From assembly GCF_014202215.1 (NCBI RefSeq), contig NZ_JACHGB010000005.1, positions 124,001 through 188,000 on the forward strand: a stretch of 64,000 bases of DNA, read 5' to 3'. Below the pieces are notes generated by a model. That model ran no database searches, was not told the DNA's origin, and worked only from the letters and a program-made list of their open reading frames with translations. A program made the translations under genes and the position numbers. Shown one piece after another: positions 6,810 through 9,015 of the stretch. Each line of letters starts with the position of its first letter. Position 1 is the first letter of the stretch. The DNA comes from Quisquiliibacterium transsilvanicum (GTDB lineage Bacteria > Pseudomonadota > Gammaproteobacteria > Burkholderiales > Burkholderiaceae_E).

Positions 6810-7451
6810 TCATCCCATTTCCTGCACCTGCATCCCGGTCGCCTGCGCAAGGCGCGCCAGGTCCCACCCGCTTCCGAGCAGCAGCATTCGCACCGAAAGG
6901 TCGTCCTGCAGTTCCTGCGCCACTTCGGCGCCGAGGTGGCGCAGGGCCTTGTCGCGCACTTCCACGTAGGAAAGGGGGTAGTCCCGCCCGAGCCCATGCC
7001 ACAGCGCGTGGGCGCCCGTCGACAGCCGGGCGCCGCTGAGCAGGCAGAAACCGGAATCGAGCCCCCACCGGTGGACTGCACTGCCCAGGCCGCGGCGCTG
7101 CCAGGCGGGATCGAAGCTGGAGTGCGGCGATCGCAGGTAGGGATCGGCGCGGCGGCCCACCTCGATCAGCCGGTTGAAGACCGTGTAGCCGACGAGCCGG
7201 CCGCTCGCCTGGTCCTCGACGTAGACGTAGTGCTCGCCATCCGCCTCGCGGTGACGGAAGACCAGGCCCGGATGGCCGGAATCGATCGACAGCGTGCTCA
7301 GCCGGGGTGCGCCGGGGCGGCGCAGCCTCTGCCGAATCCGTTCCAGGTCATCCGCGGGATGACCTTCGCCGCGCCGGACGTCGATCCTGAGCTGCAGCGG
7401 ACGTGGAATCCCGAACATCCATGCGGGCAGGCAGGGAAGTGCATGCATCAT
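6810..7451 (-). CDS. GNAT-like acetyltransferase, partner of the beta-helix protein
   Basis: A 213-residue protein of unknown substrate. The central part resembles a GNAT fold: a strand region YVYVEDQASGRLVGYTVFNRLIEVG followed by the acetyl-CoA loop QRRGLGS (Q/R-x-x-G-x-G/A type) and a helix. The C-terminal part (LGRDYPLSYVEVRDKALRHLGAEVAQELQDDLSVRML) is not part of the classical fold. GGGAGG lies 5 bases before the ATG; a second ATG follows immediately. The gene starts 11 bases after the repeat protein gene on the same strand, so the two are probably one operon and function together. Confidence 0.7.
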   Translation of the reverse strand: MMHALPCLPAWMFGIPRPLQLRIDVRRGEGHPADDLERIRQRLRRPGAPRLSTLSIDSGHPGLVFRHREADGEHYVYVEDQASGRLVGYTVFNRLIEVGRRADPYLRSPHSSFDPAWQRRGLGSAVHRWGLDSGFCLLSGARLSTGAHALWHGLGRDYPLSYVEVRDKALRHLGAEVAQELQDDLSVRMLLLGSGWDLARLAQATGMQVQEMG

Positions 7452-7462
7452 GGCCGCCTCCC

Positions 7463-8383
7463 TCAACGGAAACCGAGGGCGAGCGCGGGCTCGATCCCAG
7501 GCGGGACGGCGCGATCCGCCGCTTCGCCCGCCCACCAGCCGCTGACCAGTCCTTCCGGCCGGCGGGAGGCCCGCACCGGCGCGCTGGCATCCCAGGCGTC
7601 GCGGCGCACCGCCAGGCCGGCGTGGATCCCGTAGCCGCGCCCGGCGCTGAGTTCCCCTGCCGACTCCACGCCTTCGCCGGCGCGCACCGAGCCGCCCGCG
7701 ACGATCGCGCCCCCCGCACGGATGCCCCACCCGGCATCCAGGTGATCGCCGCAGCGAAGGTCGCCTCCGGCAAGGATTCCCTGGCCGGCGCGCAGCCCCT
7801 CGGCCGCCTCGATGCGCCCGCCCACACGAAGGCTGCGCGCGCATTCGATCCTGCCCCCTGCGACCAGGTCTGCGCCCACCGTGGCACGCCCGGCAACCGA
7901 CAGCGCCCCCTCGCAGGCCACGCCCCATGCGACCCTCAGGTCGCCGGCGCAGCGCAGATCCCCGCCGGCCTCCACGCCCCAGTCCGCGCGCAGGTGCCCG
8001 CCGACCTGCAGCAGACCCGCGCAGCGCACCTGCCCGCCGGCGCGCAGATCCTCCCCCACCTGGACCGCGCCGCCCGCGCGGATGCCTCCGCCCGCGTGGA
8101 TCGAGCCGCCGGCGCGGGCCAGGGTATCGACGTCGATGCCACCGCGCACCCGCAGCGTGCCGGCGAAGACGATGGCTTCGGCGTCGACCGAATCGAGTTC
8201 GAGCACGGTGTCGACCGGACCGAACTGGTCGAGCAGCCAGCAGGCATCGGAGACGCGGCCGGCGGCCACGAGCGCGTCGAGAAGATCCTGGTAGTCGCCG
8301 CCGGCAGGCCGGTTCCGGACGAACCAGCGGAAGCCGCTCGAGCAGGGCCGCTTGGCCCTGACGAAGTCCTTGGTGAGATCCAT
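7463..8383 (-). CDS. Hexapeptide-repeat (predicted beta-helix) protein
   Basis: A 306-residue protein with two parts. Residues 1-75 form a mixed helical domain (MDLTKDFVRAKRPCSSGFRW, then LLDALVAAGRVSDACWLLDQFG). Residues about 80-265 contain some 28 consecutive six-residue units of the form (A/V/C)GGxLR, for example AGGDLR, VGGHLR and AGGSIH. That periodicity predicts a beta-solenoid, in the general manner of bactofilins or polymer-forming proteins. No signal peptide or membrane helix is seen. The chosen ATG follows GGGG-rich sequence; an extension to 8470 is non-conserved in appearance. Function unknown; it is likely operonic with the downstream GNAT-like gene. Confidence 0.7.
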   Translation of the reverse strand: MDLTKDFVRAKRPCSSGFRWFVRNRPAGGDYQDLLDALVAAGRVSDACWLLDQFGPVDTVLELDSVDAEAIVFAGTLRVRGGIDVDTLARAGGSIHAGGGIRAGGAVQVGEDLRAGGQVRCAGLLQVGGHLRADWGVEAGGDLRCAGDLRVAWGVACEGALSVAGRATVGADLVAGGRIECARSLRVGGRIEAAEGLRAGQGILAGGDLRCGDHLDAGWGIRAGGAIVAGGSVRAGEGVESAGELSAGRGYGIHAGLAVRRDAWDASAPVRASRRPEGLVSGWWAGEAADRAVPPGIEPALALGFR

Positions 8384-8939
8384 TGGGATGCCCCTTTTCT
8401 CGCAGGCCGCCGCGCAGGTGTCGCGGCGAAGGGCAGCGCCCTTCGGGATGCGTCGGCAGGGCCGGCGCATCGCAGCCGTACTGGAATCCCGGAAGGCGCG
8501 CTGCGCGTCAGCCGATCCCTGGCGGGACCGACGGCGGCGGAGAGACTCCCGGCATGCACGTTGATCGGAAGCGCGCAGGCGCGCCTCCGGGCAAGGTGCC
8601 GTGCGGGGAGATCAGGACTGGGTGTGCCTGTCCTGGGGCCCCCGCACGGCCAGGGAGGGCACGGCGGGGAACCCGAAGGTCTCGAGCGCTGCCGGCACGG
8701 GGCAGCGCGATGGGGAGCCCCGCTTCACGAGCGCGCAGGCCACCGCCGCATGCGGAGCATGCGTAGGCGTGGACCGGGCGGTGAAGGCGGCGGGCATCGG
8801 GGCTGGCTCGGACTCGTCGAACGCGACGGCCTGGCGTACCAGACCGTCGGTTGCGGGCAGCTGCCCGCGAAGTGCGGCGCGCCTCGGCGCTGGCCGCAGA
8901 ATGGGAAGCCCGGCGAAATCCGGACCACCCGCGAAGGGG
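8384..8939. other. 556-base stretch without a convincing gene
   Basis: This region lies between the repeat-protein start and tRNA-Arg. Short open frames on both strands lack ribosome sites and family features. It must contain the promoter of the repeat-protein/GNAT operon, but no clear -35/-10 pair was found. I looked for signatures of 4.5S RNA, RNase P RNA and tmRNA and saw none. There is no duplicated tRNA 3' end that would mark an attachment site. Confidence 0.5.
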
Positions 8940-9015
8940 TGGCGCGCCCGGCTGGGATCGAACCAGCGACCCCTGGCTTCGGAGGCCAGTACTCTATCCA
9001 CTGAGCTACGGGCGC
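8940..9015 (-). tRNA. tRNA-Arg (anticodon CCG)
   Basis: Reading the minus strand, the 7-base acceptor arm GCGCCCG pairs with CGGGCGC at 8944-8950. The D arm is AGCTCAGTGGATAGAGT. The anticodon stem CTGGC/GCCAG encloses loop CTCCGAA with anticodon CCG, and the T arm has the usual GGTTCGATCC. The 3' CCA is encoded at 8940-8942. It decodes CGG arginine codons, which are common in this GC-rich genome. Its 3' end faces the repeat-protein/GNAT pair. Confidence 0.97.

What the first reader, a model, noticed from the sequence alone, without database searches (positions are those of the whole stretch)
6810..8383. Uncharacterised pair: GNAT-like protein plus a hexapeptide-repeat beta-helix protein
A soluble protein of about 28 six-residue units (AGGxLR type) with a helical N-terminal cap is followed 11 bases later by a protein with an acetyl-CoA loop QRRGLGS. 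The tight operon suggests that the acetyltransferase modifies, or is recruited by, the solenoid. Lysines are almost absent from the repeats, so N-terminal, Cys or partner modification is more likely than repeat acetylation. I know no described system with this composition.
Basis: partly seen in the sequence, partly recalled or inferred. Interest (0 to 1): 0.6.

Follow-up and report, generated by a model that had tools for sequence, protein, structure and literature searches.

The report
Conserved beta-solenoid plus acetyltransferase gene pair
Two neighbouring bacterial genes, one for a rod-shaped repeat protein of fixed length and one for an acetyltransferase-fold enzyme, travel together across many genera of Burkholderiales, so they probably act together, but nobody seems to have described what they do.

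Summary
Window 7463-8383 (-) encodes a 306-aa beta-solenoid (about 31 six-residue units, helical N-cap). Eleven bases downstream, 6810-7451 (-) encodes a 213-aa GNAT-fold protein. Of 80 GNAT relatives taken from 84,980 species genomes, 30 have a homologous solenoid gene directly upstream on the same strand. Other neighbours differ between genera. In six genomes of one genus the gene order is reversed. In 200 genomes of one related family, 32 of 33 GNAT-bearing genomes also carry the solenoid, often far away. AlphaFold2 gives confident models of both (pLDDT 91 and 88). The solenoid is capped at both ends and of nearly constant length, unlike temperate-phage relatives with the same caps but variable repeat numbers; E. 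coli YdhT shares only the N-cap. Several GNAT loci adjoin universal stress protein and Rnk-like genes. My best guess is a cytosolic two-protein stress module in which the solenoid is a scaffold for a protein acyltransferase. The functional link is well supported; the mechanism is inferred. Limits: 24 genomes have the solenoid alone, 7 of 13 GNAT genomes in an order-wide sample lack it, and no complex could be predicted.

The parts
7463..8383 (-). Capped beta-solenoid protein, 306 aa (P0001)
   Evidence: AlphaFold2 mean pLDDT 91.4, about 98 in the solenoid; homologues
8222..8383 (-). Part encoding the helical N-cap (residues 1-54), with invariant or nearly invariant K11, C14, W20, Y31, R43, D46, W49
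   Evidence: shared with phage-type proteins and E. coli YdhT
7634..8206 (-). Part encoding the solenoid (about residues 60-250; about 31 six-residue units, about 10.5 coils of 18 residues)
   Evidence: C14-to-C-cap spacing 234-236 residues in 46 of 47 chromosomal relatives that could be measured
7511..7633 (-). Part encoding the C-cap (residues 251-291; YGIHAG...W264...P276..L..SGWW)
   Evidence: same motif in viral contigs
6810..7451 (-). GNAT-fold acyltransferase, 213 aa (P0002), with QRRGLG loop at residues 118-123 and a low-confidence N-terminal tail (about residues 1-26)
7452..7462 (-). 11-base gap between solenoid stop and GNAT start
   Evidence: in relatives the gap runs from -14 to 314 bases, 12 of 28 are 20 or less

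Best explanation
The two genes form a conserved two-protein module of Burkholderiales. The first is a cytosolic beta-solenoid rod of fixed length, closed by a helical N-cap and a C-cap. The second is a GNAT-fold acyltransferase. Most likely the rod is a scaffold or adaptor that docks the GNAT or its protein substrate, so that acylation happens at the right place under stress; neighbouring universal stress proteins are candidate substrates. Shown here: conserved operon, reversed order in one genus, co-occurrence when unlinked, both folds (predicted), fixed rod length, enrichment of stress genes nearby. Inferred: complex formation, protein (not small-molecule) substrate, stress role.
For: Solenoid directly upstream of the GNAT in 30 of 80 loci across Cupriavidus, Herbaspirillum, Herminiimonas, Massilia, Rhodoferax, Zoogloea, Thauera, Dechloromonas and others, always same strand, while the outer neighbours differ by genus. 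Reversed order GNAT-then-solenoid in six genomes of one genus. In 200 genomes of family f4, GNAT in 33 and solenoid in 56, both in 32 (Fisher p 1e-20, relatedness ignored; at genus level 8 of 8 GNAT genera among 16 of 43, p 9e-5). Order-wide: 6 genomes with both against 0.26 expected (p 9e-9). In a class-wide draw both families were found only in this order. GNAT fold: Foldseek best E 4.9e-5, VIA Z up to 9.6. Fixed length. Universal stress protein genes within two genes of the GNAT in about 8 separate contexts, with Rnk-like (GreA_GreB domain) genes at several loci; about 0.4-0.6 contexts expected (rough).
Against: 24 of 56 f4 genomes have the solenoid without the GNAT, and its conserved residues (H214, W219, E237, K11) persist there. 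7 of 13 GNAT genomes of the order sample have no solenoid even with a profile search. No complex could be predicted and no activity is known. The GNAT fold matches include small-molecule acetyltransferases (phosphinothricin, spermidine, aminoglycoside) as well as protein acetyltransferases, so substrate type is open. The window's own contig C5 shows no Usp match.
Confidence: 0.35

Rival explanations
1. The two proteins serve the same condition but do not touch: the operon only co-expresses an acetyltransferase and an independent structural or binding protein.
For: Each occurs without the other (24 solenoid-only genomes in f4; 7 GNAT-only genomes). Conserved solenoid residues do not depend on GNAT presence. 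The GNAT can sit directly after a universal stress protein gene with no solenoid (L042, L059).
Against: Co-occurrence while unlinked (32 of 33 GNAT genomes in f4) and the re-formed pair in reversed order argue for closer dependence.
Confidence: 0.32
2. The solenoid itself is the substrate: the GNAT acetylates the invariant Lys11 or the N-terminus in the helical N-cap and so switches what the cap binds.
For: Lys11 is invariant (26 of 26) and lies in the cap near invariant Cys14, while the rod is nearly lysine-free.
Against: Lys11 is just as conserved in solenoid-only genomes and in the phage-type relative L036 with no GNAT partner.
Confidence: 0.14
3. A bactofilin-like cytoskeletal polymer regulated by acetylation.
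For: Weak sequence likeness of the coils to FapA (21 of 27 members) and Bactofilin (4 of 27); right-handed beta-helix matches mostly at 3.3-4.4 A.
Against: P0001 scores 12.9 bits against the Bactofilin cut-off of 27.9. Both rod ends are closed by caps in the model, which would block the end-to-end stacking of bactofilins.
Confidence: 0.06
4. A phage-derived moron, anti-phage or toxin-antitoxin unit: the solenoid is a DNA or protein mimic inherited from temperate phages and the GNAT a toxin or effector.
For: Proteins with the same N- and C-caps lie in the early region of temperate-phage contigs (L173), and the N-cap occurs after the N gene of Edwardsiella phage GF-2; two of five phage-type proteins are strongly acidic (net -16 and -18). 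The order upstream partner then GNAT resembles GNAT toxin-antitoxin operons (general knowledge).
Against: No PADLOC match. The GNAT was not found in viral contigs. The GNAT persists without the solenoid in several families, unlikely for a toxin whose antitoxin is the solenoid. Chromosomal solenoids are only mildly acidic.
Confidence: 0.1

Closest known systems
E. coli YdhT (last gene of the ydhYVWXUT operon, function unknown)
   Same: N-terminal helical cap (profile comparison E 2.5e-7 over 48 residues, 35% identity), followed by a repetitive region
   Different: Different repeat type (about 9-10-residue units), no shared C-cap seen, no GNAT partner; an FNR box lies upstream of the E. coli operon but none upstream of these genes
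Temperate-phage capped solenoid proteins (viral contigs L173-L180; L036)
   Same: Both caps and the six-residue G-I-x-A-G units
   Different: Near-perfect repeats and variable length (C14 to C-cap 106-208 residues against 234-236); no GNAT found in viral contigs
FapA, bactofilin and MinC C-terminal beta-solenoids
   Same: Cytosolic beta-solenoid type, weak sequence matches
   Different: Far below curated cut-offs; helical N-cap and distinct C-cap; no such operon partner known to me
GNAT protein acetyltransferases (for example Rv0998, S. lividans PAT, RimL, NatD)
   Same: Fold, and a QxxGx[G/A] loop
   Different: The window GNAT reaches no curated GNAT cut-off; own N-terminal tail; unknown substrate; a separate solenoid partner instead of a fused regulatory domain

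Membership tests
GNAT superfamily | GNAT fold | tested here: met
   Model pLDDT 88; Foldseek E down to 4.9e-5 and VIA Z up to 9.6 against GNAT structures
GNAT superfamily | Acetyl-CoA loop [Q/R]xxGx[G/A] | tested here: met
   Q118-R-R-G121-L-G; Q118 and G121 invariant and the next-but-one residue nearly always G or A in alignment A1; G121 invariant, Q118 at 90% or more in A4
GNAT superfamily | Acyl-CoA-dependent acyl transfer | not testable with these tools
   No assay
Bactofilin (PF04519) | Curated sequence score | tested here: not met
   12.9 bits against cut-off 27.9; 4 of 27 relatives match at E 0.01 or better
Bactofilin (PF04519) | Solenoid ends free to stack into polymers | tested here: not met
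   Helices 5-54 and C-cap 251-286 close both ends in the model; a model, not an experiment
FapA (PF03961) | Curated sequence score | tested here: not met
   14.7 bits against 31 for P0001; 21 of 27 relatives match at E 0.01 or better, best 2.9e-9
Left-handed hexapeptide (LbH) proteins such as LpxA and GlmU | Left-handed beta-helix | tested here: inconclusive
   LbH chains align with high Z but 11-12 A rmsd, right-handed helices mostly with 3.3-4.4 A, which suggests a right-handed rod; handedness was not measured on coordinates. No hexapeptide family among Pfam hits
YdhT (NF007410) | Full-length equivalog score | tested here: not met
   20.1 bits against 300; only the N-cap matches
GNAT toxin-antitoxin (TacAT, AtaRT type) | Ribbon-helix-helix antitoxin beside the GNAT | tested here: not met
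   The partner is a beta-solenoid; the GNAT occurs without it in 7 of 13 order genomes
Known anti-phage defence systems | Match to PADLOC models | tested here: not met
   No match for either protein or for the relatives tried

The most novel reading that the evidence does not exclude
A phage-type capped beta-solenoid was taken into the chromosome, frozen at a set number of coils, and became a length-defined rod that directs a GNAT acyltransferase to its targets: a stand-alone 'ruler' subunit for bacterial protein acetylation.
Probability: 0.13. Interest if true: 0.75.

Novelty: new variant of a known kind. Interest (0 to 1): 0.5.

Why it matters
If the pair is a complex, it would be a bacterial acetyltransferase whose action depends on a separate beta-solenoid rod, and a rare case where a repeat protein's exact length is under selection. 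It also gives an operon partner and comparative data for a cap-plus-solenoid family that temperate phages carry and whose relative YdhT is still uncharacterised in E. coli. The reversed-order and unlinked genomes offer natural controls, and the pair occurs in culturable genera such as Cupriavidus and Herbaspirillum.

Tried and rejected
FNR regulation, suggested by the YdhT link: no FNR-type boxes upstream of solenoid or GNAT genes beyond chance, with ydhY as positive control. Sigma-54, CRP and sigma-70 consensus: no excess. GNAT-presence-specific surface residues on the solenoid: none consistent. Relatives in solved structures: the solenoid profile matches a 1238-residue LIM-domain-named chain (repeat likeness) and designed PPR proteins at the cap hairpin; the GNAT profile gives nothing significant. 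Known defence system: none. Phage-borne GNAT: none found. Literature searches found no paper on such a pair in the open-access library. In the GNAT tree the row L035 was mis-framed by my script and is meaningless; the tree is used only to say that the window GNAT lies in a supported set of 36 rows, 29 of them tandem. Gene calls in relatives come from a simple codon-usage caller of my own, so some starts are uncertain.

Full report
Observation. On the minus strand of the window an ATG at 8383 opens a 306-aa frame ending at 7463, and an ATG at 7451 opens a 213-aa frame ending at 6810; 11 bases separate them. The first protein is a run of G-x-x-[IL]-x-A units behind a helical segment. The second holds QRRGLG. 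Neither reaches a curated Pfam or NCBIfam cut-off.

Is the pair real beyond this genome? A first look in the window's own family found few relatives and no second adjacent pair. A sample of 399 genomes of the order gave eight full-length solenoids and 13 GNATs, both in six genomes (0.26 expected), adjacent only in the window and in G389, where four bases separate the genes. A scan of 84,980 species genomes with a GNAT alignment then gave 222 relatives, of which the best 80 were kept. A solenoid profile found a homologous gene in 30 of these 80 loci, in every case directly upstream on the same strand. Genera include Cupriavidus, Herbaspirillum, Herminiimonas, Noviherbaspirillum, Massilia, Oxalicibacterium, Rhodoferax, Ramlibacter, Rubrivivax, Zoogloea, Thauera and Dechloromonas. 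The genes outside the pair change from genus to genus, so the pair is the unit that is kept.

Unlinked and reversed genomes. In 200 genomes of the family that contains Achromobacter and Bordetella, the solenoid is in 56 and the GNAT in 33; 32 of these 33 also have the solenoid (p 1e-20 by genome, 9e-5 by genus; the genome-level value ignores relatedness). In Achromobacter-like genomes the two genes lie far apart; in one genus (g200) the order is GNAT then solenoid, adjacent in six genomes. At one conserved locus two genomes have solenoid plus GNAT (overlapping by four bases) and a third has the solenoid alone (L155, L156, L169), so the GNAT comes and goes beside a stable solenoid. Outside this family, 7 GNAT-bearing genomes have no solenoid even by profile search. 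A draw of 274 genomes across the class found both families only within the order.

Structure. AlphaFold2 with 27 relatives gives the solenoid at mean pLDDT 91.4, about 98 in the rod: N-terminal helices 5-9, 15-24, 31-40, 44-54, then short strands, one per six residues, from 60 to 241, then a C-cap with a helix at 261-267. Matches to right-handed beta-helices superpose mostly at 3.3-4.4 A, matches to left-handed hexapeptide enzymes only at 11-12 A, so a right-handed rod is more likely, though I could not measure handedness on coordinates. The GNAT model has mean pLDDT 88, with a low-confidence N-terminal tail, and matches GNAT structures broadly, including Rv0998, a protein lysine acetyltransferase, but also small-molecule acetyltransferases.

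Fixed length. The rod region aligns almost without gaps across genera. The distance from Cys14 to the C-cap motif is 234-236 residues in 46 of 47 chromosomal proteins that could be measured. Five phage-type proteins with the same caps measure 106-208 residues and have near-perfect repeats. Conservation in the rod peaks in the last coils (H214, W219, G220, E237).

Relatives of the caps. The N-cap matches E. coli YdhT (E 2.5e-7) and a protein that follows the N gene of Edwardsiella phage GF-2. Both caps occur in proteins of temperate-phage contigs, one of which lies between a repressor-type gene and replication-type genes (L173). I know of no function for any of these. Whether the phage or the chromosomal form came first is not tested.

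Surroundings. Within two genes of the GNAT or pair, universal stress protein-like genes occur in about eight separate contexts (Variovorax, Paucimonas, a Comamonadaceae MAG, Ramlibacter, Noviherbaspirillum, Massilia, Rubrivivax, Accumulibacter; Pfam Usp confirmed for the five tested). Ten such genomes hold 2-14 Usp matches each, so about 0.4-0.6 contexts are expected by chance in 45 (a rough estimate with assumed gene and context numbers). Rnk-like genes (GreA_GreB C-terminal domain) lie next to the module or the GNAT in L033, L035, L058/L130, L059, L096 and, by sequence likeness, L157. This points to a stress setting, not to a precise function.

How it may work. The shared range, the conserved operon and the re-formed pair show that selection links the two genes. 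The simplest mechanism is a rod that docks the GNAT or its substrate. This step is inferred. Independent action in one stress response is nearly as likely, because each protein also occurs alone. Acetylation of the solenoid itself has one good candidate site, Lys11, but its conservation does not depend on the GNAT.

Verdict. It is a new combination of known folds, undescribed in the libraries and papers searched here, with an open mechanism.

Noticed in passing
window 8400-8450 and upstream of solenoid genes in L066, L069, L114, L122, L128, L135, L142, L029, L031, L040: Perfect GC-rich hairpins upstream of the solenoid start: 27 of 38 have a stem of 7 or more base pairs within 200 bases, against 80 of 382 control genes with intergenic upstream regions. 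Stem sequences differ between genera; no consensus structure was built, and relatedness was not corrected for.
   Followed up: partly
L058, L059, L042, L130, L033, L035, L157, L096: Universal stress protein and Rnk-like (GreA_GreB C-terminal) genes recur beside the GNAT or the solenoid, also where the other partner is missing.
   Followed up: partly
L155, L156, L169: Same locus beside a 742-aa gene: solenoid plus overlapping GNAT in two genomes, solenoid alone in a third of the same genus.
   Followed up: no
L037:6412-6953: Phage-type capped solenoid beside phage-like genes, cut by an in-frame TGA within the repeats.
   Followed up: no
window 8940-9015: tRNA-Arg (CCG) on the minus strand about 550 bases upstream of the solenoid gene; no integrase or element boundary was looked for.
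   Followed up: no
L028:8748-9560: E. coli ydhT, end of an oxidoreductase operon with an FNR box, shares the N-cap, which links that uncharacterised protein to a phage-borne solenoid family; Komagataeibacter phage phiKX1 carries a gene annotated ydhT.
   Followed up: partly
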